Positions 40,708-54,103 of a stretch of DNA of 64,000 bases are shown in pieces. The stretch comes from Empedobacter falsenii (lineage in GTDB: Bacteria; Bacteroidota; Bacteroidia; Flavobacteriales; Weeksellaceae). The DNA is taken from the NCBI RefSeq assembly GCF_013488205.1, contig NZ_CP040908.1, positions 3,102,001-3,166,000 of the forward strand, in the 5' to 3' direction. Under the pieces are notes generated by a model. It was not told the origin of the DNA, searched no databases, and saw only the letters and a list, made by a program, of their open reading frames with translations. The translations under genes were made by a program, and so were the position numbers. Numbering within the stretch: the stretch's first letter is position 1; every line of letters starts with the position of its first letter.

Positions 40708-41367
40708 CTAAACTTTCTTATAAACCGCATAAAACTGATAAAAATGTTGAATATTCTCAACATCAAAAATGATTTGTTTCCATTGGTTTAATTCCAAAAT
40801 CAATTGATTTTCGTGTTGAATAAACTTTCCAACAAAAATTTCATCATCATTCAAATACAAACCAAATTTATCATTGACCAAATGTAAATTTTCCACTTCC
40901 AAATGCTCAAAAAATAAAATAGACGATTCTTCTTCTGTAAAATCAATAGGAGAAGCGATACTCGAAGAATATTCTAACGCAATAAATTGATGTGAATTAT
41001 AAATTGGAAAATAGATTGAAGGATAATTTTCTAAGTTCGAAAACAACTCTTTTTTTGCTTGGATAACTTCTCGAGATAAAAAAGGAATCGCGCTCAAATT
41101 TTTAACATTTCGCAACATATCAGCTTCCTCGAAATAGTTATCAAAGTGTAATATTTCGTTAACTGTTAAGTTTTTTTCGATTAAATGACTTATCGGAATG
41201 CTAAAATATTTAGCAATTTGAGAAATTGTTTCAATTTTTGGTTCTGCACGTTTTTCTTCATAAGATGAAATATTTCCTCTACTAACTTCAAATAAGTCAG
41301 CAAAAGCCTGTTGAGTTAAGTTCTTAACCTGTCTTAATTTTTTTATATTTTCACCTATTTTTGTCAT
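40708..41367 (-). CDS. XRE-family transcriptional regulator
   Basis: 219 residues. The first 68 are a lambda-repressor-type HTH: IGENIKKLRQVKNLTQQAFADLFEVSRGNISSYEEKRAEP, then TISQIAKYFSIPISHL. The C-terminal 145 residues are acidic and may bind a signal; an S24 peptidase dyad is not visible. It is divergent from the chaperone-PspA-flotillin-ATPase series, with 93 bp between start codons. The dyad TTGCTAA-N5-TTAGCAA lies in that gap. It is a likely regulator of the island (inference from layout). Confidence 0.88.
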   Translation of the reverse strand: MTKIGENIKKLRQVKNLTQQAFADLFEVSRGNISSYEEKRAEPKIETISQIAKYFSIPISHLIEKNLTVNEILHFDNYFEEADMLRNVKNLSAIPFLSREVIQAKKELFSNLENYPSIYFPIYNSHQFIALEYSSSIASPIDFTEEESSILFFEHLEVENLHLVNDKFGLYLNDDEIFVGKFIQHENQLILELNQWKQIIFDVENIQHFYQFYAVYKKV

Positions 41368-41391
41368 TATTTAAAATTTTAACATTTTTAA

Positions 41392-41410
41392 TTGCTAATT
41401 ATTTTAGCAA
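41392..41410. promoter_or_regulatory. Perfect dyad, candidate XRE operator
   Basis: ttgctaa (41392-41398), 5-nt spacer, ttagcaa (41404-41410). Arms of 7 bp are perfect, centred between the two divergent genes. XRE repressors commonly bind such dyads. Confidence 0.5.
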
Positions 41411-41460
41411 GTTGTTTAATTTTATGGAAACAAATTACAAAAAACACGAATAACAACAAA

Positions 41461-41853
41461 ATGAATTATTTTTCGAAGATTGAAAATTTTATTCAAAACA
41501 TCAATTACACCATCAGTTACAAAGACGAAAAAGAAGGTGTTTTTATGATTGAAAATTTATTGGATGGTGTTCAAAATCTGATTGTAGGAATTGCACCACC
41601 TGTCATCATTTTCGAGTTGTATTTATTTACAATTACAAATGATAATCTGGAAATGCTAAAAGCGTTGTTGATGAAAAATCGCGATATCATTCATGGTGCT
41701 TTTGCAATAACAGAAGACGGAAACAAAGTTATTTATCGTTACACACTTCAAATTGCGAATCTTGATCAAAACGAATTTGAAGCAACGTTAAACTCTTTGA
41801 GTTTATTGATGAGCGAATATTCTGCTCAATTAATCGAATTTTCTAAACAATAA
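41461..41853 (+). CDS. YbjN / CesT-Tir-type chaperone-like protein
   Basis: From ATG 41461 the protein has 130 residues; the 23-residue upstream extension is not similar to the family and overlaps the putative operator. The fold pattern (KIENFIQNINYTISYKDEKEGVFMIEN, then FELYLFTITNDNLEMLKALLMKN, and QIANLDQNEFEATLNSL) resembles the YbjN/type III secretion chaperone superfamily. Such proteins are known to occur beside PspA. It is the first gene of the series and precedes pspA by 12 bp. A partner-binding role is inferred. Confidence 0.75.
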   Translation: MNYFSKIENFIQNINYTISYKDEKEGVFMIENLLDGVQNLIVGIAPPVIIFELYLFTITNDNLEMLKALLMKNRDIIHGAFAITEDGNKVIYRYTLQIANLDQNEFEATLNSLSLLMSEYSAQLIEFSKQ

Positions 41854-41865
41854 AACAATATCACT

Positions 41866-42570
41866 ATGAATATTTTCAAACGTATTTTTAGAATTGGACA
41901 AGCAGAAATACATTCGGTTGTCGAAAAAATGGAAGACCCAATTAAAATGACTGAACAAGGAATTCGCGAAATGCGCGACGATCTTAATCAATCATTAGAA
42001 GCTTATGCAAAAGTAAAAGCGATGGCAATTCGTTCGCAAAATAGCGTAGACAAAAAGAAAGAAGAAGCGGCAGATTACGAACGAAAAGCAATTCTTTTGT
42101 TAGAAAAAGCTGGGCGAAGTGAAATTACAGTTGAACAAGCCGAAAGTTTAGCGAAAGAAGCTTTGGGCTTAAAGAAGCAATTGTTAGAAGAAATTACTGA
42201 ATTAGAAAATCAAGTAATTATTCATGAAAAATCTGCAAATGAAGTCCATAAAAATGTCGAAGTTCTAAAATTCAACATTAATAAATGGGAAAATGAATTG
42301 ACAACGTTAAAAGCGCGTGTAAAAGTTGCTGATGCGACAAAACAGGTAAACAAACAAATGGCAAAAATTGATGCAAATAGCACAATTAGCATGTTAGAAC
42401 GCATGAAAGCCAAAGTAGAAGAAGACGAAGCGCTTGCGCAAGCTTACGGAAGTTTGGCGGATAATTCGAAAACAGCTGATGATGAAATTAATGAAACCTT
42501 GAAAGGAGATTTGATTCAAAATGAATTAGAAGCTTTGAAGCTAAAAATTCTATCGAAAAATCAAGAATAA
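41866..42570 (+). CDS. PspA/IM30 family protein
   Basis: 234 residues, nearly all helical coiled coil, without a membrane segment. NIFKRIFRIGQAEIHSVVEKMEDPIKMTEQGIREMRDDL at the N-terminus is the membrane-binding amphipathic helix and first helical hairpin of the PspA/Vipp1/ESCRT-III fold. EQAESLAKEALGLKKQLLEEITELENQV continues the hairpin. PspA relatives bind stressed inner membranes and assemble into rods and rings. The chaperone-like gene lies upstream and flotillin downstream, which places it in a membrane-maintenance module. Confidence 0.92.
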   Translation: MNIFKRIFRIGQAEIHSVVEKMEDPIKMTEQGIREMRDDLNQSLEAYAKVKAMAIRSQNSVDKKKEEAADYERKAILLLEKAGRSEITVEQAESLAKEALGLKKQLLEEITELENQVIIHEKSANEVHKNVEVLKFNINKWENELTTLKARVKVADATKQVNKQMAKIDANSTISMLERMKAKVEEDEALAQAYGSLADNSKTADDEINETLKGDLIQNELEALKLKILSKNQE

Positions 42571-42639
42571 ATCACTTTTTATAGTGAGTTTTATTTCTTT
42601 AAAATAATAGAACTTAATCATTTTTAATTTTGAAACTAT

Positions 42640-42834
42640 ATGCCAAAATTTGAATACAAAACAATCGAAATAAAAGCTGAACAAGGAATTTTCAAAGTCT
42701 CTATCGACCAAGAATATTTAGATAAATTATTGAATCAATACGGAGCAGAAGGCTGGGAATTAACCTCCTCTACTCCATTGTCAAATAATGGAATAACTTA
42801 CAGAATTTATTTTACCTTTAAAAGACAACTTTAA
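42640..42834 (+). CDS. DUF4177 domain protein
   Basis: 64 residues, one domain. The pattern FEYKTIEIKAEQGIFKVSIDQEYLDKLLNQYGAEGWELTS is the DUF4177 fold, a small beta-alpha-beta unit whose hallmark is GAEGWEL. Its function is unknown. It starts 69 bp after pspA, with a weak hairpin between (tcact/agtga near 42572-42587), and is 18 bp from the next gene. Small GWEL-type proteins recur near membrane-stress modules, but its role here is unassigned. Confidence 0.8.
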   Translation: MPKFEYKTIEIKAEQGIFKVSIDQEYLDKLLNQYGAEGWELTSSTPLSNNGITYRIYFTFKRQL

Positions 42835-42852
42835 CACTAAAAATCAACGCTA

Positions 42853-43545
42853 ATGAGCGAAATTTTAAACCTTCTTTTCAATCCATTGGCCAATGGAATT
42901 ATGACCATTCTGATGGGATTTTCTCTCGTCTATTGGGTGTTTCAATTGTTGGCTGGTGACGGAATTGACCTTGGAACTGATTCAGATTTTCATATCGGAG
43001 ACATCAATGATGTTGATGCGCACCACGAAATTGACGCCGATCACGATGCTGATGCTGACGTGCATCACGAGCCAGGTTTTTGGGCAAAATGTTTAGAATT
43101 TATCAATGTTGGTAAAGTTCCGTTAATGGTAATTATTACCTTGTTCAAATTTATCAGTTGGGTGATTACCATTATTTCTTCGATTGTTTTTGGATTAAGC
43201 AAGTTAGGATTGTATTCTGTTTTAGTTTTAATTCCAGTTTTCATCATCGCTTATTTTATGATGCATTGGATTACAAAACCACTCGTAAGAGTTTATGCAG
43301 AATTAGGCTATCACGGAGAAGACGAAACAGATTTTATTGGAAGAGTCGGAAAATCGAAGTCTAAAATCACTGGTGATAAAATAGGTTCTGCTGAATTTCA
43401 AATCGAGAAAGATATTATTACGCTTAACATCAAAAGTCAAAATGGCGAAGAAATTAATTTTGGTGACACCATTATTATTACTGACGAATCGCCGTCAAAT
43501 CATTATTATTTCGTCATCAAACACATTACTTTAAACAATATTTAA
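42853..43545 (+). CDS. YqiJ/NfeD-like membrane protein with OB-fold
   Basis: 230 residues. An N-terminal membrane helix (about 12-34) is followed by an acidic His/Asp-rich loop (residues 45-75, repeated DADHD/HHE patterns) that could bind metal. Two or three further helices (about 82-140) come next, and then a C-terminal OB-fold domain (DFIGRVGKSKSKITGDKIGSAEFQIEKDI through FGDTIIITDE). This matches the YqiJ arrangement, which pairs with flotillins of the YqiK type much as NfeD pairs with stomatins. The His/Asp loop is notable. A flotillin gene follows 99 bp later. Confidence 0.83.
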   Translation: MSEILNLLFNPLANGIMTILMGFSLVYWVFQLLAGDGIDLGTDSDFHIGDINDVDAHHEIDADHDADADVHHEPGFWAKCLEFINVGKVPLMVIITLFKFISWVITIISSIVFGLSKLGLYSVLVLIPVFIIAYFMMHWITKPLVRVYAELGYHGEDETDFIGRVGKSKSKITGDKIGSAEFQIEKDIITLNIKSQNGEEINFGDTIIITDESPSNHYYFVIKHITLNNI

Positions 43546-43552
43546 CCTAATT

Positions 43553-43618
43553 ATGATACTATTATTTCAACTTACTTCGTTTATTATCGAAGATATTTTA
43601 ACCTTAATTATTAACTAA
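43553..43618 (+). CDS. Possible 21-codon micro-ORF
   Basis: An ATG-initiated 21-codon frame sits in the 99-bp gap between the YqiJ-like and flotillin genes. It encodes a hydrophobic, mostly Ile/Leu peptide (begins MILLFQLTSF, ends LIIN). Its hydrophobic nature would suit a small membrane peptide, but AT-rich gaps produce such frames by chance and no ribosome-binding site is convincing. Low support. Confidence 0.15.
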   Translation: MILLFQLTSFIIEDILTLIIN

Positions 43619-43644
43619 ATCAATCAAAATATAATAAAAATCTC

Positions 43645-45729
43645 ATGACAAATTTTATTCTTTTAGCAGTTGGTGTCATCGTTTTCATCTTTATTGCTTT
43701 CATCGTCGTTTTAAGCGTTTTCTATAAAAAAGTTCCGCAAGGAAAAGCCATCGTTCGTACTGGTGTTGGTGGATCGCAAGTAGCTTTCAACAAAGGAATG
43801 TATGTAATTCCTGTTTTCCACAAAATGGAAATTATGGACATTTCGATTAAGAAAATTGATATTACTCGTCAACAACACGATGGTTTAATTTGTAAAGACA
43901 ACATTCGTGCAGATATCAAAGTTGCATTTTTTGTTCGCGTTAATAAATCGGTGAATGATGTAATCAATGTTGCACAAAACTTAGGAACAGAACGAGCATC
44001 AGAACCAGAAACATTAAAAAGTATTTTCGAAGCAAAATTCTCAGAAGCTTTAAAAACAGTTGGAAAAAAATTCGATTTTATCGAATTATACGAAGCTCGT
44101 CGCGAATTTAGAGATGAAATTTTAAATATCATCGGAACAGACTTGAATGGATATATTTTAGATGACTGTGCGATTGATTATTTAGAACAAACTGAATTAC
44201 AATTCTTGAGCCCTGATAATATTTTAGATTCGGAAGGTATTAAAAAAATCACGGAATTAACGGCTCAACAAAATATGAACGCCAACTTAATTCGTCGTGA
44301 AGAAGAAAAAGTAATCAAAAAACAAAACGTTGAAGCGCGCGAAGCAATCTTAGAATTAGAGCGACAATTAGCCGAAAAAGAAGAGCGTCAACGCAGAGAA
44401 ATCGAAAATATAAAAGCGCGCGAAGAGGCAGAAATTGCAAAAGTTCGCGAAGAAGAACGTCTAAAAGCTGAATCTGTTCGTATTACAACAGAAGAGCAAT
44501 TGGCGGTACAAGAAGAAAATAAATTGCGTCAAATTATTATCGCAGAAAAAAATAAAGTTCGTACTGATGCAATCGAAACGGAACGCGTTGAAAAAGATCG
44601 TGCATTAGAGCAAACAGAACGTGAGCGAATTGTGACTTTAGCTCAGATTGATAAAGAAAGGTCTATCGAAGTTGAGAAGAAAAATATTCAAGGCGTTATC
44701 AAAGAACGCGTTCTTTTAGAAAAAGGCGTGATTGAAGAGCAACAAGGTGTGAAAGATGTTGAAGTTTACCGTGAAGTTGAGCGTCAGAAACAAGCCGGAA
44801 TTATTGCTGCATCGCAAGAAGCGGAAGAGCGTTTAATCGAAACTGTAAAAGCTGCGGAAGCGGCAAAAATTGCGGCAGAGCAAGAAGCTGCTCGTCAAGT
44901 TATCGAAGCAGATGCACAAAAACAAGTTGCAGAACGCAAAGCGCAAGAGTTATTAATTGATGCGGAAGCTAAAAAAGAAGCTTCTGCAAAAGAAGCTGAA
45001 GCTCGTAAAATAATTGCTGAAGCACAAGCAAAAGAAGAAGCTGCAATTGGTCTATCTGAAGCAGAAGTAATGGTTGCAAAAGCAGAAGCAGAAGAAAAAC
45101 AAGGAACTGTAGAAGCATCTGTTATCGAGAAAAAAGCAGAAGCGTTACGTAAAGAAGGCTTAGCACAAGCAGAAGTTGTTCGTGAAAAAGCGTTGGCAGA
45201 AGCGAAAGGAATCGAGGAAAAAGCAGAAGCAATGAAGAAATTGGACGGTGTTGGAAAAGAGCACGAAGAGTTCAAACTTCAATTACAAAAAGAAAAAGAT
45301 ATCGAATTGGCTCAAATAAACATTCAAAAAGATATTGCTGGAGCGCAAGCTGAGGTGTTATCAACTGCATTAAAATCTGCAAAAATTGATATTGTTGGTG
45401 GAGAAACGATGTTCTTCGAAAATATTGTCAAACAAGTTTCGAATGCAAAAGGTTTCGATCATTTAATCGACAATTCTAAACATGCAACAGATATCAAAAA
45501 TGCGTTGATTGACGAAGATGGTGGAAGCGATTTAGCTGGAAAAGTGAGAAGTCTTGCCGATAAATATGGTATTTCGTCAAACGACATCAAAAACTTAACA
45601 ATTACTGCTGCATTAATTAAATTGCAGCAAGCTGCTTCGGCTTCTGGAAACAACGAAGACACAGGATTTATCAATTCTCTTTTCGGAATTGCGAATCAAT
45701 TAGGTGTTTCAAATAAAAAAATAGGTTAA
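43645..45729 (+). CDS. Flotillin family protein (YqiK-like)
   Basis: 694 residues. A single N-terminal membrane helix at about 4-27 is followed by an SPFH/Band-7 domain (VPQGKAIVRTGVGGSQVAFNKGMYVIPVFHKMEIMDISIKKIDI through ILDDCAIDYLEQTELQFLSPDNILDSEGI). A long charged heptad helix (about 210-560, Glu/Ala/Lys rich) and a short C-terminal region (DIKNLTITAALIKL) complete it. This is the flotillin layout of the E. coli YqiK group, a lipid-microdomain scaffold. YqiJ-like protein upstream is its usual partner. The C-terminal region probably recruits clients. Confidence 0.93.
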   Translation: MTNFILLAVGVIVFIFIAFIVVLSVFYKKVPQGKAIVRTGVGGSQVAFNKGMYVIPVFHKMEIMDISIKKIDITRQQHDGLICKDNIRADIKVAFFVRVNKSVNDVINVAQNLGTERASEPETLKSIFEAKFSEALKTVGKKFDFIELYEARREFRDEILNIIGTDLNGYILDDCAIDYLEQTELQFLSPDNILDSEGIKKITELTAQQNMNANLIRREEEKVIKKQNVEAREAILELERQLAEKEERQRREIENIKAREEAEIAKVREEERLKAESVRITTEEQLAVQEENKLRQIIIAEKNKVRTDAIETERVEKDRALEQTERERIVTLAQIDKERSIEVEKKNIQGVIKERVLLEKGVIEEQQGVKDVEVYREVERQKQAGIIAASQEAEERLIETVKAAEAAKIAAEQEAARQVIEADAQKQVAERKAQELLIDAEAKKEASAKEAEARKIIAEAQAKEEAAIGLSEAEVMVAKAEAEEKQGTVEASVIEKKAEALRKEGLAQAEVVREKALAEAKGIEEKAEAMKKLDGVGKEHEEFKLQLQKEKDIELAQINIQKDIAGAQAEVLSTALKSAKIDIVGGETMFFENIVKQVSNAKGFDHLIDNSKHATDIKNALIDEDGGSDLAGKVRSLADKYGISSNDIKNLTITAALIKLQQAASASGNNEDTGFINSLFGIANQLGVSNKKIG

Positions 45730-45732
45730 TAC

Positions 45733-45920
45733 AACCTATTGTACATTTTGAATTAAAATTCGTCAATTCGAGTGATTTTTAGAAATGAAATGAATAAAAA
45801 TTGTATCGAGAATTAAGTCGAATTTTATCTTCCAAAACCTTATTCTCGATACAAAATTCTAAAAGAATTTCACTCGAATTGACGGTTTTATTGATAAAAT
45901 CATCAAAATGTACAATGGTT
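45733..45920. repeat. 188-bp nested inverted repeat
   Basis: Three pairs of arms nest in order. Outer: aacctattgtacattttga (45733-45751) with tcaaaatgtacaatggtt (45903-45920), one indel. Middle: cgtcaattcgagtga (45761-45775) with tcactcgaattgacg (45870-45884), perfect. Inner: ttgtatcgagaatta (45801-45815) with tattctcgatacaa (45841-45854), nearly perfect. The single-stranded form would be a long hairpin. It fills most of the 281-bp gap between the flotillin and ATPase genes. It looks like a MITE-like or REP-type element; no target-site duplication is evident. Confidence 0.8.
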
Positions 45921-46010
45921 TAATTTATTAAACAACAATAGAGTGATTGAAATTTTACCGTTTCAATCGCTCTTATCAACACGTTTAATCACCTTTTAGA
46001 TTTTAATTTA

Positions 46011-49000
46011 ATGCAAGAAGAAAAAAATATTAACGTTACCGAAACGCTTGATGCAGGCGCGTACGAAATCATCCGAAAAAGACTTCTTACACAAAAAGAT
46101 TTTCTTTCGGAAAGATTAACGAAATTGAACGAAGCTCGTAAAGAGGTGTTCAATTCTACCAATTTTGCATTAAGCGCAAACCAAAGAATTACGACAGAAA
46201 ACACTTGTATTTCACGTGGAATTATCGCGTTCGATAAATTATGTATTTTTGGGTACAACGTCCATTTCGGTTTACGCACAGACATTCAGTTGAGCGATGT
46301 TTTTAGTATTTATCTGTTTCAAGAAAATCAATTTATACCTCAACCTCTCGACTTAATTAACGATCAGAATTTCTTTACAGATTTTCAGAATTTATATAAA
46401 TATTACCGCGATTCTATCTTTTCTAAATTTCGTAGAACAGATAATTATTTATACATGGTTTTCCAAACCAGCAAAAGCGCACAAGATTTAAAAGCGTTTA
46501 AATGGTTAATCAAAGACGGAAAATTAATTTATCAAGATGATCGCAGCATTCACGAAGTAAAAAAAGCAGATCAATTTGATTTCGAATGGCAAAAAACGTC
46601 AATTGATGATCGTCGATTAGGTAAATTTCCACACATTTCTATTTTAGATAAAATTTTTATCGAAGCGATTGGTGGCGATATTACGTTCAAAATTGAGGAT
46701 AATACGGATACAGGAAAAGGAATTTTCACTGAAAAAGTTACGCATTTAGATCAACAATTAGACGATGCCGAATATTATTACGCCGATTTAGGAAATCTGA
46801 TTGCGGTTAAAATCAAACCTTTTCAAGAAGATTTCAGAGCGTATATTTACAATGTTCGCACCAAGGAAGTCATCAATATTCCTGCTCTTTTGGATGCAGC
46901 AGTTTTGTTGCCAGACAATCAAGGTTTGATTTTTTCGAATGGCTATTATTTACAAAACGGAACCTATCATATATTCGAAAATAAGTTAGATAATTTTCAA
47001 TTTTTCCGTCGTGTAAATTCTCCAAACGGAGAAGATTTTATGTATATTTTCAATCAAGATGAAACCAATACATACATTCTTTTATCGTACAATATCATTC
47101 AACAAAATGTCGAAACGCCTATTGTTTGCAATGGTTTTACTATTTTTAAAGACGGAAGTTTAATCTATTTCCGCACAGAAGAAGAAGCAACGCGACATCA
47201 TCAAGTTCAGATTTGGGAAACGCCTTATGTCGAGCGTTTGGTGGAAAATCAAGAAAAAACAAATCATCCATTATACAAAATTGGAAACAAAGACATTGTA
47301 AAAGCAATGGCTGAATCTCAAGAAGTTATCCAATTAATTAACAAAGAAGATTCGTACGAAGGTTTGTATGAGGACATTGTAAAAAAAGCGAATAATATTG
47401 TTGATGGATATTTTTGGATCAATGACAAAGATACCTTTGAGCTAGCTATTCCTTTGCTAGAAATCAAAACGGTTGCCAATACAGCGATTGATGAATTTGC
47501 AAAAGTCCAAGTTCAGAAAAAATTTGCGCAAGAAACGTTAGAAAAAACGGAAAAATCGATTGAAGAAATCGTTTTCAAAGTAAATAGTACAACGTATAAT
47601 CAATTGGATTTATTGGTTGAACATTTGGCTGAAGCGCGTAAAATTCAAGGAAAAGTGATTGATTTACGTTCGATTCGTTATATCAATTTAGAACGTGTTC
47701 AGGAATTAGAAAATCAATTGCAAGAAGTCAACGAAAATTTATCAACCAAAACAATTGAGTTTCTTTTATTGGATGAAGCGCTGATTCCGTATGAAGAAAA
47801 AGTTGCGGAACAGAAAAATTTAGTGGCTTCGATTGAGAAAGTTGTTGACGCTAAAGTAATCGAAGAATCTTGTCTTAAAATTGCTTCCGAATTAGAGTTA
47901 TTGATTGACATTCTGAACAGTTTAAAAATTGAAGACGCCACGCAAACAACAAAAATTATTGAGAAAATTTCTGTCATTTTTGCTTCGCTTAACGAAGTTC
48001 GTGCGCAATTAACACGTCAAACTTCTGCCTTAAAAAGCAAGGAAGCGGTTGCCGAATTTTCTGCTCAAATTACGTTGTTGGAACAAAGTGTGGTCAACTT
48101 TTTAGAGTTATCAACAACTGCCGAAAAAACGGAAGAATACAATACAAAAATCATTGTTCAGCTCGAAGAATTAGAAAGTAAATTCTCTGATTTTGATGAT
48201 TTCGCTTTAAAAATTGCAGATAAACGCGACGAAATTATCAAAGCGTTCAATTCGAAGCGCGAACAATTGGTTGAACAAACCAACAAACGCACCAATTCTT
48301 TAGAGCAAATTGGTTTGCGAGTCTTGAAAAATATCGAAAATAAATCCAAAACTTTTTTAGAAAAAGAAGAAATTTTAGCGTTTTATTCTTCGGATTTGAT
48401 GATTGATAAAATGCGTCAAATCATTCAAGAATTAAAGGATTTGAAAGATGTTTCGAAAGCCGAAAATCTTGAAAATCTCTTGAAAAAATCTCAAGAAGAT
48501 ACGCTTCGTGTTTTACGTGATAAAACTGAACTTTTTGTTGATGGACAAAATATTATTGCGCTCGGACAAAATAAATTTACGGTCAATACGCAGCAATTAG
48601 CGCTGACTTTGCTGAATCGTAACAACGAATTATTTTATCATTTAACAGGAACAAGTTTCTATCAAAAAGTTAAAAACGAAGAAATTTATCGTTACCAAGA
48701 TATTTGGAATCAAGAATTTGTTTCGGAAAATCAATTGGTTTATCGCGCTGAATATTTGGCTTATCAAGCTTTTTTAGCGAGAAATGAAAAAGATTTCGAT
48801 GCTGAAAAATTCATCAATCAAATCATTGAACAAAATTATTCGGAAGGTTATATAAAAGGCGTTCACAATTTTGATGCGTTGCGAATTTTCACTGAATTAG
48901 TAAATATTAATTCGAAATTGGATGTCTTACAATTTGATGCTCAAACACGCACAACTGCTCAAGTTTTTTGGCATTCATTAGAAAAGAATTTACAAGAAAA

Positions 49001-50846
49001 ATTGAACGCGATGATTAATTCAGCTCAATTAATTTTGAAAAATTTTCCGAATTCAAATCGTTTTGAAAATATTCTAAATGAAATCAAATCGCTTTTTGAA
49101 AATTGGGAAACCGAATGGGATAAATCGCAAACATCATCAGAAAAAGTTTCTCACTATTTGTTTACAACTTTCACGAAATATCAAGCTTTTTCGATGAGTA
49201 GAGAAGCTGAAAAATTTCAAAAAGAGTTTGTAAATTATTTAGAAAAAAATAAAAATTCGGAAGATTTTAATGCATTGATTACAGATCAACAATTTTCTTC
49301 AACCGAAAAATTTTACTTGATCGAAAACTGGATTCATTCTTTTATTGATGAAAACGAAAATTATTCGTCATATAGAAATGTGGTGAATGAAGTGGCGGCA
49401 ATGCTTTTATTTTCGAAAGATCTATATTATATAAATGATGGAAATTCTGTCATCAAAATTGAAGATTTGAAAGGAAATCATGTGGTAATTGTTGAAGGAA
49501 TTTATACTCAAAATTATCATGAAATCATTTCGAAATTAGAGCATTTTTCAACTGTTGATGTTCCAAATTTTAAATCATTCCAAAAGCTAAAAGAAGAAAT
49601 TTCTAAATCGTATGAAAAAGATTTAAAAATCGCAGAATTTGAACCAAAAGTTTTGACATCATTTGTTCGAAATAAATTAATCAACGAAGTTTATTTTCCT
49701 TTAATCGGAAATAATTTAGCCAAACAATTGGGAACAGCAGGCGAAAACAAGCGCACCGCACGTATGGGAATGTTGTTGTTAATTTCGCCTCCAGGTTATG
49801 GAAAAACGACGTTGATGGAATATTTAGCCAAAACAATGGGCTTGCATTTTGTGAAAGTGAATGGACCTACAATTGGACATAACATTACGTCAATCGATCC
49901 AATCGAAGCCAAAACTTCTGGAGAAAGAGAAGAATTGAAAAAGATCAATCTTTCGTTTGAAATGGCGGATAATGTAATGTTGTACTTGGACGATATTCAG
50001 CATTTGAGTGCAGAATTTTTGCAGAAATTTATTTCATTAGCCGATGGACAGCGAAAAATTGATGGAATTTTCGAAGGAGAAAGTAAAACCTACGATTTAC
50101 GTGGAAAACGTTTTTGTATTGTAATGGCTGGAAATCCATATACGGAAAGCGGTTCTAAATTTCAGATTCCAGATATGTTAGCCAATCGTGCCGATGTATA
50201 TAATTTGGGTGATGTAATTGGTGATACGGAAACTTTGTTCAATTTAAGTTTGATTGAAAATGCGACAGGCGATAATCCTTATTTGGATAAAATTGCTTCA
50301 AAAAGTTTAACCGATTTTTACAAGTTAGCAAATTTTGTAACCGAAAATCAAGAACAACTTCCAAATTTGGAAGGCAATTATTTGAAACAAGAAATTGACG
50401 ATTTTATTGCTGTTTTGAAACATGTGATTAAGATTAGAAATATAGTCGTAAAAGTCAATCAAAATTATATTGCAAGCGCAGCAATGCAAGATGATTACAG
50501 AACTGAACCGCCTTTCAAGATGCAAGGTTCGTACAGAAATATGTCAAAATTAGTTTCGAAAATTGTTCCGATGATGAACGAAAAAGAAATTAATGAAACG
50601 ATTTTGGCGCATTACGAAAGTGAATCTCAAACGTTGACAACAGATGCAGAATCGAATCTTTTGCGCTTAAAAGAAATTGCAGGTTTGATGACTTCCGAGG
50701 AAAAAGAACGTTGGGAAACGATAAAAGCAACGTTTGTCAAAAACAATAAACATGGCGGCTTGAATAAAGACGATAAAGTTTTTTCTCAACTGCTCGAATT
50801 CAATGAAAATTTGGAAGGAATTATCAAAGCAATCTTGAAAAAGTAA
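46011..50846 (+). CDS. Giant AAA+ ATPase with coiled coils (annotated elsewhere as 'DNA repair ATPase')
   Basis: 1611 residues, no signal peptide or membrane helix. Residues 1-470 are beta-rich and may form a propeller-like domain. Residues about 480-900 are long charged helices (coiled coil). Residues about 900-1220 are a helical domain. An AAA+ domain occupies about 1225-1480: Walker A ISPPGYGKTTLMEYLA near 1258, Walker B MLYLDDIQHL near 1325, sensor 1 VMAGNPYTES near 1373, and the second-box Arg in LANRADVYNLGDV. It is the last gene of the PspA-flotillin series. The 'DNA repair' label, which I know from database usage, is not supported by anything visible; membrane or protein remodelling is as likely. 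Confidence 0.85.
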   Translation: MQEEKNINVTETLDAGAYEIIRKRLLTQKDFLSERLTKLNEARKEVFNSTNFALSANQRITTENTCISRGIIAFDKLCIFGYNVHFGLRTDIQLSDVFSIYLFQENQFIPQPLDLINDQNFFTDFQNLYKYYRDSIFSKFRRTDNYLYMVFQTSKSAQDLKAFKWLIKDGKLIYQDDRSIHEVKKADQFDFEWQKTSIDDRRLGKFPHISILDKIFIEAIGGDITFKIEDNTDTGKGIFTEKVTHLDQQLDDAEYYYADLGNLIAVKIKPFQEDFRAYIYNVRTKEVINIPALLDAAVLLPDNQGLIFSNGYYLQNGTYHIFENKLDNFQFFRRVNSPNGEDFMYIFNQDETNTYILLSYNIIQQNVETPIVCNGFTIFKDGSLIYFRTEEEATRHHQVQIWETPYVERLVENQEKTNHPLYKIGNKDIVKAMAESQEVIQLINKEDSYEGLYEDIVKKANNIVDGYFWINDKDTFELAIPLLEIKTVANTAIDEFAKVQVQKKFAQETLEKTEKSIEEIVFKVNSTTYNQLDLLVEHLAEARKIQGKVIDLRSIRYINLERVQELENQLQEVNENLSTKTIEFLLLDEALIPYEEKVAEQKNLVASIEKVVDAKVIEESCLKIASELELLIDILNSLKIEDATQTTKIIEKISVIFASLNEVRAQLTRQTSALKSKEAVAEFSAQITLLEQSVVNFLELSTTAEKTEEYNTKIIVQLEELESKFSDFDDFALKIADKRDEIIKAFNSKREQLVEQTNKRTNSLEQIGLRVLKNIENKSKTFLEKEEILAFYSSDLMIDKMRQIIQELKDLKDVSKAENLENLLKKSQEDTLRVLRDKTELFVDGQNIIALGQNKFTVNTQQLALTLLNRNNELFYHLTGTSFYQKVKNEEIYRYQDIWNQEFVSENQLVYRAEYLAYQAFLARNEKDFDAEKFINQIIEQNYSEGYIKGVHNFDALRIFTELVNINSKLDVLQFDAQTRTTAQVFWHSLEKNLQEKLNAMINSAQLILKNFPNSNRFENILNEIKSLFENWETEWDKSQTSSEKVSHYLFTTFTKYQAFSMSREAEKFQKEFVNYLEKNKNSEDFNALITDQQFSSTEKFYLIENWIHSFIDENENYSSYRNVVNEVAAMLLFSKDLYYINDGNSVIKIEDLKGNHVVIVEGIYTQNYHEIISKLEHFSTVDVPNFKSFQKLKEEISKSYEKDLKIAEFEPKVLTSFVRNKLINEVYFPLIGNNLAKQLGTAGENKRTARMGMLLLISPPGYGKTTLMEYLAKTMGLHFVKVNGPTIGHNITSIDPIEAKTSGEREELKKINLSFEMADNVMLYLDDIQHLSAEFLQKFISLADGQRKIDGIFEGESKTYDLRGKRFCIVMAGNPYTESGSKFQIPDMLANRADVYNLGDVIGDTETLFNLSLIENATGDNPYLDKIASKSLTDFYKLANFVTENQEQLPNLEGNYLKQEIDDFIAVLKHVIKIRNIVVKVNQNYIASAAMQDDYRTEPPFKMQGSYRNMSKLVSKIVPMMNEKEINETILAHYESESQTLTTDAESNLLRLKEIAGLMTSEEKERWETIKATFVKNNKHGGLNKDDKVFSQLLEFNENLEGIIKAILKK

Positions 50847-50907: not shown

Positions 50908-52041
50908 ATGAAAAAAATAACCTTTCTTTTTGTACTATTTAGTTCAATTTTTTCCTATTCTCAAGACACGATTTTCATTAATCATAGAGGCGATACAATT
51001 TCAGGTAAAGACTTAAGTAAATTAGAAAAAAAGCGAACAACAAAAAAAATAGTTCAAAACAATCAACTAAAATCCGTTATCTATTCTAATTTTTTAATTA
51101 AAGAAAAACCTCAAGCTTCTTACACTGGGATTTTTCAAAATGGAAAACCTTATGATGGATATTTCATCAATAAGATTATTCTGAACGAAATTCCTTTAGT
51201 TGATTTTTACGAAAAAGGCGAACTAAAATATCAGTATTCTTTTGATTTTTTGAAGCAATTAGATAATTATCAATTTTATGAATATGATCAAAAAAGTGTC
51301 TACAAAAATGGCAAAATTGTAGACGGTTTTGAGTTTTTCGATAGCGAAGAAGGTTTTTTAATTCGAATTGGATATAAAAATGAAAAGGCAAATTACCTTG
51401 AAATGAATCTTTTCGCAATGCACGCTTTTAACCGATTATCATTTGATTATAATGGAAAAGAAATCGTGGTGAAAGATTTTGAGAAGCAAACTTCAATCAA
51501 ATTAACAGAAAAAAATAATGGCATTTTTGCAGAAGTTTTTGATGAAAACGGAAAATTGATTGTCAATAATCAACAAAAAGAAGTACAAAAAAGTTCACCT
51601 AATTCTACTACAATTTTTAAAATAGAAAATAATCAACTGAAAGAAGAGAACATATCTCCAGAGAGTTTAAACCCTTTAATCGAAAAAGTTTATAAAGAAA
51701 TCAACCCATTAATTGTGTTGATTTATTCTGCTGTTGCATGTAATCGAACGATGAAAATAGATGATTTGTTTAATCAATTTGCAGAAATTTTTAAATCAAA
51801 TAATATTCAAAAATTATTTTCTCAAGAATCATTTATAGAAGGTCCAAATAAAGTGCTTTCAAGTTTGAGTTATAATAAAAATGGAAATCCTGATTGGGGA
51901 ATTAAAATTTCTGAAACAGAAAAAAAGTATTTGGTTGAATTTTATAAAGAAGGAAAAGTGACTTTTACTAAAAAAGTAAATTCTATCGACGAAGTTCAAG
52001 AAACGATTAATTCTCTTTTAGTAAAACCTGAAGAAGAATAA
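50908..52041 (+). CDS. Secreted protein of unknown function (377 aa)
   Basis: 377 residues with signal peptide MKKITFLFVLFSSIFSYSQ. The mature part is basic and Lys/Asn-rich with beta-like segments and pieces recalling MORN/toxin-immunity-type repeats (TGIFQNGKPYDGYFINK, GKIVDGFEFFDSEEG, ENGKLIVNNQQ). These may be weak 'NGK' repeat units. There is no catalytic motif. It is probably periplasmic or outer-membrane associated. It is separated from the ATPase by a terminator, so not part of that operon, and followed by a bidirectional terminator. Confidence 0.7.
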   Translation: MKKITFLFVLFSSIFSYSQDTIFINHRGDTISGKDLSKLEKKRTTKKIVQNNQLKSVIYSNFLIKEKPQASYTGIFQNGKPYDGYFINKIILNEIPLVDFYEKGELKYQYSFDFLKQLDNYQFYEYDQKSVYKNGKIVDGFEFFDSEEGFLIRIGYKNEKANYLEMNLFAMHAFNRLSFDYNGKEIVVKDFEKQTSIKLTEKNNGIFAEVFDENGKLIVNNQQKEVQKSSPNSTTIFKIENNQLKEENISPESLNPLIEKVYKEINPLIVLIYSAVACNRTMKIDDLFNQFAEIFKSNNIQKLFSQESFIEGPNKVLSSLSYNKNGNPDWGIKISETEKKYLVEFYKEGKVTFTKKVNSIDEVQETINSLLVKPEEE

Positions 52042-52070: not shown

Positions 52071-52712
52071 TTAATTAAATTTATCTCCTCTGAATATTTT
52101 CACAGGATTTCCTCTTGCAATAGACGTTTGATTGTTCCATTTTTCTTGAACCAAGTCCTTCAATTTATTGGTTTCAAATTCTTGTAATTTCAATAACAAA
52201 CGTGTTGTTGCAATTTTTTTGTTCTGATGTTGCGAACGCGAATCCATCGAAACAACAGAAATTCCACTTGGTTGATGCGTTGCACGAACAGCCGAATTTA
52301 CTTTGTTTACATTTTGTCCACCATTTCCAGAACTTCGCATTGTTTGGTAAACAATTTCATTTGGATTAATTGAATTTTCTTTCGGAATTTCTAATTCAAA
52401 ACAACCAATAAACCAGTTTTTTCGTTGATGAAATTTTCGATACGGACTTTTACCAATCCATAAAATTGTTCCAATCCATAAAATTGTTCCAATCCAAGGT
52501 ATCAAAAATGTGTTTAAATCATTCCCTTCAAGTTCTATAATCACAGATGAAAGTTGATTAAAATCTTTATCAATTTCTCTTTCGATTACGTCAAACTTAA
52601 TATCGGATTTTGTGCACGCTTCCGAAAACTTTTTAAAAACATTAGTTACCACAAAATTGCATTCTGCAGGTCCTCTACCCGATGTAAGTTGAATAATTTT
52701 TTTCATCATCAT
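52071..52712 (-). CDS. prfH: Peptide chain release factor homologue PrfH
   Basis: 213 residues of the RF-family peptidyl-hydrolase domain. The catalytic GGQ is in [20 protein letters not shown], and the family phrases [16 protein letters not shown] and [11 protein letters not shown] are present. Stop-codon recognition domains are absent. By published family work, PrfH releases peptides from ribosomes whose 16S decoding centre is cleaved, and RtcB then ligates the break. It starts with three ATG codons, and the rtcB stop overlaps the first by 1 nt (TAATG), so translation is coupled. The coding region carries an 18-bp tandem duplication at 52453-52488 giving WIGTIL twice. Confidence 0.93.
52453..52496 (-). 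repeat. 18-bp in-frame tandem duplication inside prfH
   Basis: On the plus strand ccaatccataaaattgtt occurs at 52453-52470 and again at 52471-52488 without a mismatch, and ccaatcca follows at 52489-52496. The protein gains six residues (WIGTIL repeated) ahead of WIGKSPYR. Confidence 0.9.
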
Positions 52713-54103
52713 TATTTATCCATTCGTACAATTTTCGGCGTAAAAGTTCCCAACACTTTCACTAATTCGGTTTGTAAATTCATCACCGTTTTGATGTTTT
52801 TATACGCAAATGGCGCTTCATCAACACTTCCTCCTATCAGCTCAATTTCTGCATCTTTCAATTGTGCATTCATAAAGCTTTTGGTAATCGTTGATTTACA
52901 TTTTGCACGTGACATTTTTCGTCCCGCACCATGCGAAGCCGAATTAATACTCGATTCATTTCCCAATCCTTCGACAATATAACCGTTCGCGGTCATCGAA
53001 CCTGGGATAATTCCTAAAACTCCTTCTCCAGCTGGCGTTGCACCTTTGCGATGAACAATTCGTTCCGTTCCATCAACCATTTCCTTCCACGCAAAATTGT
53101 GATGATTTTCGATGTTAAAAACGATACGTTTTCCTATAGCTTTCGCAATTCTTCGGTGAATATCGTCGTGACAAGCCTTTGCATAATCTCCTGCCAAATT
53201 CATCGCAGCCCAATACTCTTGTCCATCGTGCGTACCCAAATCCAACCAAGCCAAATGCTGAACTTGTTTCGGAAGCGGACATTGTTTCGCCGCCAAATAT
53301 GTGTAATATTTTGCAATATTTGCACCCAAACCACGCGAACCACTATGCGATAAAACAGCCAAATATTCACCTGGAATCAAGTTCCATTCTGGTTTTACCT
53401 CGTCTAATTTTACAATCCCAAACTCAACAAAATGATTCCCTCCGCCCGAAGTTCCCAATTGTTGATAAGCTTTTGTTTTCAAACTTTTCAAGATTGGAAT
53501 TTCATCAAAAATAGAACGTTCAAAAATTTCGTGATCAGCTTTTAATTTATGCGTTTCATACATTCCGAATTTGGTATGATCTTGCAAAATCTGAATCAAT
53601 TGATGCGATTTTCCTTTCAAAAAACTGGCTGGTAAATCGTAAACCGAAAGACTCATTCTACAACCAATATCCACACCAACTCCATACGGAATCACCGCAT
53701 TATCCGTCGCCAAAACGCCACCAATCGGCAATCCATAACCTGAATGTGCATCTGGCATCAAAGCGCCTTTTACCGAAATCGGCAATTTCAACGCGTCATA
53801 CAATTGAAATTTTGCTTGTTCATCAATTTCATTTTCACCAAAAATCGAAAAAGGCGAACGCGTCGTTTTCAATTCTTGTAATCTAACCTCAACTGGTTTT
53901 ATCAATCCTTCCGCAACTTTTCCCCAAATTCCGTGACCAATGTACTTTTCTGGTTCGAGTAAAACTTCTTTTGCTTCGTTGAGAATCGTTTGTTTCTTTT
54001 CTTTTTTTCTGTATCGATGAATTTGCCCAATTGCAATATTGATCGAATTATTTTTTGGAAAGCCTAATTTTATGAAGTCCTTTCCAGAGATTTTATTTCC
54101 CAT
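52712..54103 (-). CDS. rtcB: RtcB-family RNA ligase
   Basis: 463 residues. Joins 2',3'-cyclic phosphate (or 3'-phosphate) ends to 5'-OH using GTP and Mn. Motifs: metal-site [17 protein letters not shown] and [33 protein letters not shown], and [22 protein letters not shown] and [15 protein letters not shown] close it; the His of HGAGR is the guanylylation site in the family. There is no archease gene in the window. It follows the basic-protein gene by 2 bp and overlaps prfH by 1 nt. The rtcB-prfH pair is a known RNA-repair and ribosome-rescue module. Confidence 0.95.

What the first reader, a model, noticed from the sequence alone, without database searches (positions are those of the whole stretch)
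40708..50846. A PspA-flotillin-AAA+ membrane-stress island with its own divergent XRE regulator
Seen: a divergent XRE gene, then five small-to-medium genes and one very large gene on one strand: YbjN/CesT-like, PspA, DUF4177, YqiJ-like, flotillin, and a 1611-residue AAA+ protein. Established: PspA/ESCRT-III-like proteins and flotillins work on stressed membranes, YqiJ pairs with YqiK, and PspA is reported beside AAA+ ATPases. Inference: the ATPase remodels PspA or flotillin assemblies, as Vps4 or PspF-like ATPases do for their partners, and the small CesT-like and DUF4177 proteins are adaptors.
Basis: partly seen in the sequence, partly recalled or inferred. Interest (0 to 1): 0.75.

Follow-up and report, generated by a model that had tools for sequence, protein, structure and literature searches.

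The report
Flotillin–PspA–ATPase membrane-stress operon
This is a real, conserved set of bacterial genes that probably looks after the cell membrane; the gene set was already described in 2024, but here its giant motor protein turns out to be tied to the flotillin scaffold rather than to PspA, and the neighbouring regulator gene has a previously unnoted, conserved DNA switch in front of the operon.

Summary
In detail: a divergent XRE gene, then CesT/Tir-like, PspA, DUF4177, YqiJ-like, flotillin and a 1611-residue DUF3686-AAA+ gene, in an Empedobacter-like chromosome. The gene set is not new. Ravi et al. 2024 (PMC11237479) describe CesT/Tir-PspA + band-7/flotillin + YqiJ + "novel AAA+ ATPase" with coiled coil and beta-propeller. 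The mechanism needs correcting. Of 86 ATPase loci, flotillin is upstream in 85, PspA in 67, DUF4177 in 31. Eight genomes (Myroides-type, Dysgonomonas) keep YqiJ-flotillin-ATPase with no PspA gene detected anywhere, so the ATPase's standing partner is flotillin/YqiJ. The AAA+ fold tentatively resembles MoxR ATPases (CbbQ/NorQ) more than Vps4. New here: XRE accompanies the operon only when both modules are joined (10/10 with the ATPase versus 0/12 CesT-PspA dyads without it, phylum survey). A palindrome, TTTGCWAA-N5-TTWGCAAA, lies between XRE and CesT; its core is perfect in 67/76 loci (about 1 expected), absent from 20 control loci, has its only perfect genome copy here, and overlaps the predicted promoter. 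XRE is therefore probably a dedicated CI-like local regulator. Function remains untested.

The parts
40708..41367 (-). Divergent XRE/CI-like regulator, 219 aa; HTH + CI/S24-like C-terminal domain (degenerate in this member)
   Evidence: HTH_19/HTH_3; aligns to a phage repressor profile over residues 2-205 (phrog_4); Peptidase_S24 found in 2 of 24 homologues; present in every locus with the joined operon whose upstream side is visible, save L080
41391..41411 (.). Predicted operator palindrome (window copy ATTGCTAATTATTTTAGCAAG; consensus TTTGCWAA-N5-TTWGCAAA)
   Evidence: core perfect in 67/76 XRE+ loci vs 1.2 in shuffles, spacer 5 in 74/76; 0 of 20 control loci; only perfect copy in the genome
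41417..41424 (+). Candidate -7 box TAATTTTA (consensus TAnnTTTG), 25 nt after the operator's TTG
   Evidence: TAnnTTTG consensus from PMC9723704; one mismatch
41461..41853 (+). CesT/Tir-like chaperone-fold protein
   Evidence: PF22550 E=2e-46; start at ATG 41461 inferred
41866..42570 (+). PspA/IM30 family (ESCRT-III-like) protein, only PspA gene in the genome
   Evidence: PF04012 E=2e-46; single genome hit
42640..42834 (+). DUF4177 small protein, optional
   Evidence: PF13783 E=2e-9; 31 of 86 loci
42853..43545 (+). YqiJ/YuaF (NfeD-like) membrane protein
   Evidence: PF21001 E=2e-5; conserved beside flotillin
43645..45729 (+). Flotillin/YqiK-type SPFH protein, 694 aa
   Evidence: 37% identity over 615 aa to a Band_7 protein; upstream of the ATPase in 85/86 loci
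46011..50846 (+). DUF3686-DUF7902-AAA+ ATPase, 1611 aa: N-terminal beta-propeller (~50-405), long helices/coiled coils, C-terminal AAA+ (~1220-1560)
   Evidence: model pLDDT 84 for residues 1-680; invariant Walker A 1259-1266, D1327/D1328, N1375, R1393, R1509

Best explanation
An accessory, horizontally moving envelope-maintenance operon made of two modules under one local regulator. Core module (YqiJ-flotillin-AAA+): flotillin and the NfeD-like YqiJ form a scaffold on the inner membrane, and the ATPase, whose beta-propeller and coiled coils would dock on that scaffold or its clients, uses ATP to remodel or disassemble it (or proteins gathered in it), as MoxR-type AAA+ proteins do for their dedicated partners. 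Second module (CesT/Tir-like + PspA): PspA polymerises on damaged membrane while the CesT-like protein holds or delivers it; in most Bacteroidota carriers it has been joined to the core. The CI-like XRE protein binds the palindrome over the promoter between the two divergent genes and keeps both low until its C-terminal domain registers stress. Shown here: gene order, co-occurrence, intact ATPase motifs, predicted propeller, conserved palindrome and its exclusive link to XRE+ loci. Inferred: all biochemical activities, the ATPase's client, repression rather than activation, and the signal.
For: Flotillin upstream of the ATPase in 85/86 loci, YqiJ detected in 80, PspA in 67. Eight genomes with YqiJ-flotillin-ATPase and no PspA hit, in at least two separate branches, Myroides-type and Dysgonomonas. 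Same core in Actinomycetota, Deinococcota and Pseudomonadota. Catalytic residues invariant in 87 ATPases. AAA+ closest to CbbQ/NorQ: ten best entries Z 8.6-9.6, next 7.7. Predicted beta-propeller. In the 345-genome survey all 10 genomes with DUF3686 carry CesT-PspA beside it; XRE in 10/10 of these and in 0/12 CesT-PspA dyads without the ATPase. Operator. Precedents: deleting the CesT-fold BacA raises its PspA-operon proteins 6-13 fold (PMC10948618); an SPFH protein links PspA to the membrane in B. subtilis (PMC8581546, title); the MoxR protein RavA and its partner bind anionic phospholipids (PMC9489729).
Against: No expression, binding or enzymatic data. The AAA+ model is mediocre (pLDDT 71, pTM 0.58), sequence profiles cannot choose between classic AAA and AAA_5, and the profile search of solved structures leans to p97/Rix7-type AAA at about E=1e-5. 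Conserved neighbourhood does not prove contact. The ATPase can stand apart from flotillin by 1.5-3 kb of inserted genes in some loci. The 79-locus set is biased to close relatives, and genomes reached by locus carry no stated completeness.
Confidence: 0.55

Rival explanations
1. One reading: the ATPase is a Vps4-like disassembly factor for PspA polymers, and flotillin only anchors the complex.
For: PspA beside the ATPase in 67/86 loci and in 10/10 survey genomes with the ATPase; Ravi et al. propose ATP-dependent remodelling by PspA-linked AAA+ proteins.
Against: ATPase kept without any detected PspA in eight genomes and without a nearby detected PspA in 9 of 11 plasmid-collection loci; the best structural matches are MoxR-type, not Vps4.
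Confidence: 0.2
2. The ATPase is a MoxR-like maturation chaperone for some membrane enzyme complex (like NorQ, CbbQ or RavA); flotillin/YqiJ provide the platform and are not its substrate.
For: Fold similarity to NorQ/CbbQ; RavA-ViaA acts on respiratory complexes and the inner membrane.
Against: No constant enzyme neighbour among the inspected loci; flotillin is the only constant neighbour. No VWA partner gene was noticed, though neighbours were not scanned with VWA models.
Confidence: 0.2
3. The operon is an anti-phage or anti-toxin defence island.
For: Patchy (10/345 genomes), on plasmids, gene tree at odds with taxonomy, CI-like regulator.
Against: None of the operon's proteins matches a PADLOC defence model convincingly (only generic HTH hits for XRE and a weak coiled-coil hit for PspA); no homologue of the ATPase in 50,697 phage records.
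Confidence: 0.05

Closest known systems
CesT/Tir-PspA + band-7/flotillin + YqiJ/YuaF + AAA+ (beta-propeller) operon, Ravi et al. 2024 mSystems (PMC11237479)
   Same: CesT/Tir-PspA dyad, flotillin, YqiJ-like 3TM protein and coiled-coil/propeller AAA+; abbreviated flotillin-YqiJ-AAA+ forms are also described there
   Different: The main text does not mention an XRE gene or DUF4177, and no operator; the PspA-free genomes and the flotillin-first ranking are worked out here
E. coli yqiJ-yqiK and B. subtilis yuaF-yuaG SPFH2 operons (PMC2636767)
   Same: NfeD-like protein plus flotillin, adjacent
   Different: No DUF3686 ATPase, PspA or XRE in those pairs as described
P. aeruginosa bac operon (BacA, CesT-fold, with PspA-like partner; PMC10948618)
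   Same: CesT-fold protein encoded with a PspA-like protein; the CesT-fold protein negatively affects its operon
   Different: Different further partners; no flotillin-DUF3686 ATPase reported in the parts read
MoxR AAA+ proteins (CbbQ, NorQ, RavA)
   Same: Closest solved folds to the AAA+ module; dedicated-partner remodelling; RavA-ViaA acts at the membrane
   Different: MoxR proteins are much shorter and pair with VWA proteins; this one is 1611 aa with propeller and coiled coils; no VWA partner noticed

Membership tests
Ravi 2024 CesT/Tir-PspA-flotillin-AAA+ operon class | CesT/Tir gene directly before a pspA gene | tested here: met
   PF22550 E=2e-46, PF04012 E=2e-46, 12 nt apart
Ravi 2024 CesT/Tir-PspA-flotillin-AAA+ operon class | Flotillin/band-7 protein and YqiJ/YuaF protein in the operon | tested here: met
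   YqiJ_N E=2e-5; flotillin via a Band_7-bearing homologue, 37% identity
Ravi 2024 CesT/Tir-PspA-flotillin-AAA+ operon class | AAA+ ATPase fused to coiled coil and beta-propeller | tested here: met
   AAA motifs; predicted propeller ~50-405 followed by long helices
MoxR AAA+ clade | MoxR-type AAA+ core fold | tested here: inconclusive
   Ten best entries are CbbQ/NorQ, Z 8.6-9.6 vs 7.7 next, but the model is mediocre and Pfam scores AAA and AAA_5 alike
MoxR AAA+ clade | VWA-domain partner encoded nearby | not tested
   Neighbouring ORFs were listed and clustered but not scanned with VWA models
Vps4/ESCRT-IV | MIT domain | tested here: inconclusive
   No MIT model among Pfam hits at E<=1; a divergent domain cannot be excluded
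CI/LexA-like regulators | HTH plus S24-like C-terminal domain | tested here: met
   HTH; phrog_4 repressor aligned over 2-205; PF00717 in 2/24 homologues
CI/LexA-like regulators | Self-cleaving Ser/Lys dyad | tested here: inconclusive
   No invariant Ser or Lys in the C-terminal half of the alignment; alignment there is poor

The most novel reading that the evidence does not exclude
The DUF3686 protein is a dedicated ATP-driven remodeller of flotillin scaffolds, a kind of machine not known (to my knowledge) for bacterial membrane microdomains, onto which PspA repair has been grafted in Bacteroidota under a single-target CI-like switch.
Probability: 0.3. Interest if true: 0.7.

Novelty: new member of a known kind. 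Interest (0 to 1): 0.42.

Why it matters
Databases call this ATPase a 'DNA repair ATPase', but its constant neighbour is a flotillin and no DNA link was seen here. How bacterial flotillin scaffolds are assembled and taken apart is unclear, and this operon offers a candidate motor in culturable bacteria, some of which (Myroides, Dysgonomonas) lack detectable PspA altogether and so separate the two activities. The predicted operator makes the operon's control directly testable.

Tried and rejected
PADLOC gave no defence assignment beyond generic HTH hits. No phage record carries the ATPase. The flotillin found no solved relative by sequence. Literature searches for 'DUF3686' and for flotillin + 'DNA repair ATPase' returned nothing. 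Vps4 membership was considered and not adopted: Vps4 chains appear in the Foldseek list but not among the 50 entries shown by the second aligner, which does not exclude kinship. Near-matches to the operator elsewhere in the genome are fewer than those of the reversed control pattern (48 vs 101), so no wider regulon is claimed. L077 was labelled PspA-free in the tree, but its genome holds an XRE-CesT-PspA-YqiJ-flotillin stretch on another contig (L094); this looks like an assembly break, not a loss.

Full report
OBSERVATION. The seven genes are present as described, with families confirmed by Pfam. The window lies in a two-contig, 3.76-Mb genome whose nearest relatives are Empedobacter species. 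The genome has one DUF3686 protein and one PspA. The flotillin matches no Pfam model, but is 37% identical over 615 residues to the pQBR103 SPFH protein that carries Band_7. The CesT frame can start at TTG 41392, but that codon lies inside the palindrome described below, so ATG 41461 is the likelier start.

ALREADY KNOWN. Ravi et al. [quoted passage not shown] The main text does not mention XRE or DUF4177. The gene set is therefore not a discovery of this window.

CONSERVATION. A scan of genome contigs gave 79 Bacteroidota loci of the ATPase; eleven plasmid-collection records were added from Hymenobacter, Pseudomonas, Proteus, Halomonas, Vibrio, Photobacterium, Nonomuraea, Streptomyces and Deinococcus. 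With profiles built from the window's proteins, among 86 loci with at least 5.5 kb upstream of the ATPase, flotillin is found in 85, YqiJ in 80, PspA in 67, CesT in 65, XRE in 64 and DUF4177 in 31 (in L031 the XRE gene lies just beyond the counting limit). The one locus without flotillin, L068, is a metagenome contig. This set leans to close relatives. In an even draw of 345 Bacteroidota genomes, DUF3686 is rare: 10 genomes, 5 genera. All 10 carry CesT and PspA roughly 4-6 kb upstream on the same strand (coordinates).

WHICH PARTNER. Eight genomes (Myroides-type and Dysgonomonas) have YqiJ-flotillin-ATPase only, and a whole-genome search finds no PspA in them, while the same search does find PspA in two other genomes of that batch. 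On the ATPase tree they fall on at least two separate branches (quick tree; L047 is not in it because its ATPase frame is broken). Of the eleven plasmid-collection loci only two show a nearby detected PspA (Hymenobacter and pQBR103). The ATPase therefore does not need PspA; its constant neighbour is flotillin. This is neighbourhood evidence, not proof of contact.

THE ATPASE. Walker A SPPGYGKT (1259-1266), D1327-D1328, the sensor-1-like N1375, R1393 (candidate arginine finger) and R1509 (candidate sensor 2) are invariant or nearly so in 87 sequences over four phyla (roles of the last three are inferred). The model of residues 1-680 (pLDDT 84) has a propeller at about 50-405 (best clean matches are WD40 domains, Z~8), then long helices. 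The AAA+ model is weaker (pLDDT 71.5, pTM 0.58); its ten best entries after realignment are all CbbQ/NorQ of the MoxR group (Z 8.6-9.6, next 7.7), while sequence search leans to p97/Rix7-type AAA at about 1e-5. The MoxR reading is tentative. The label 'DNA repair ATPase' has no support in these neighbourhoods.

THE REGULATOR AND ITS OPERATOR. The XRE protein has an HTH and a CI/S24-like C-terminal half. In the even draw, XRE lies divergent next to CesT in all 10 loci with the ATPase and in none of the 12 strong CesT-PspA dyads without it (1.5-kb flanks, so a more distant XRE would be missed). It is also absent from the PspA-free loci. Upstream of XRE sits a palindrome, TTTGCWAA-N5-TTWGCAAA. 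The core TGCWAA-N5-TTWGCA is perfect in 67 of 76 XRE+ loci against 1.2 (maximum 4) in shuffles, and the best spacer, free from 0 to 10, is 5 in 74 of 76. The consensus was read from these same loci, so the shuffle test is not fully independent, and many loci are close kin, but they span several families. It is absent upstream of CesT in the 12 XRE-free dyads and upstream of YqiJ in the 8 PspA-free loci. In XRE+ loci, 69 sites are intergenic and 34 lie elsewhere in 1.54 Mb. The window's copy is the only perfect one in the genome. It starts with TTG at 41392 and is followed 25 nt later by TAATTTTA, one mismatch from the flavobacterial -7 box TAnnTTTG (PMC9723704). A protein bound there would cover the promoter. 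Repression is the natural reading, but activation is not excluded.

MECHANISM. Most likely flotillin and YqiJ build a membrane scaffold that the ATPase remodels, with PspA and the CesT-like protein added as a membrane-repair arm. Precedents: a CesT-fold partner of a PspA-like protein lowers its own operon's output in P. aeruginosa (PMC10948618), and the MoxR protein RavA works at the inner membrane (PMC9489729). The ATPase's client, the signal and the XRE sensing step are inferred.

MOBILITY. Rarity, plasmid copies and a tree in which Paenimyroides falls in two places and Fulvivirgaceae lie inside Chitinophagaceae indicate horizontal transfer.

VERDICT. Real, conserved and interesting, but the gene set is published. 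What is added is the ranking of partners and a specific, testable regulator-operator prediction.

Noticed in passing
window 41199-41215: A second copy of the operator core (TGCTAAAATATTTAGCA) lies inside the XRE coding sequence, 194-195 nt from the first in Empedobacter, Paenimyroides tangerinum, Chishuiella and Algoriella. It falls on codons for the conserved peptide IAKYFSI, so coding constraint may explain it; a looping auxiliary site is the other possibility.
   Followed up: partly
window 52071-54103: PrfH-like release factor and RtcB-like RNA ligase genes overlap on the minus strand downstream, identified by reading the sequence; conserved in related loci.
   Followed up: no
window 45730-46010: A 281-nt gap separates flotillin and ATPase, and unrelated genes are inserted there in some Sphingobacterium and Bacteroidales loci, so the ATPase may have a promoter of its own.
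   Followed up: partly
window 50908-52041: A predicted secreted protein (weak MORN_2 match) follows the ATPase; only 9 matches in all searched loci, the window included.
   Followed up: no
L083 986-14190: Plasmid pQBR103 joins YjfI-PspA-polyamine-type genes (glutathionylspermidine synthase, DUF350, DUF1190, DUF2491) and SPFH-ATPase in one array, merging two operon classes listed separately in PMC11237479.
   Followed up: no
L082 and L105, XRE upstream regions: Hymenobacter-type loci lack the standard palindrome but show GCTCAA-N3-TTGAGC-like repeats, and their XRE recognition-helix region differs.
   Followed up: partly
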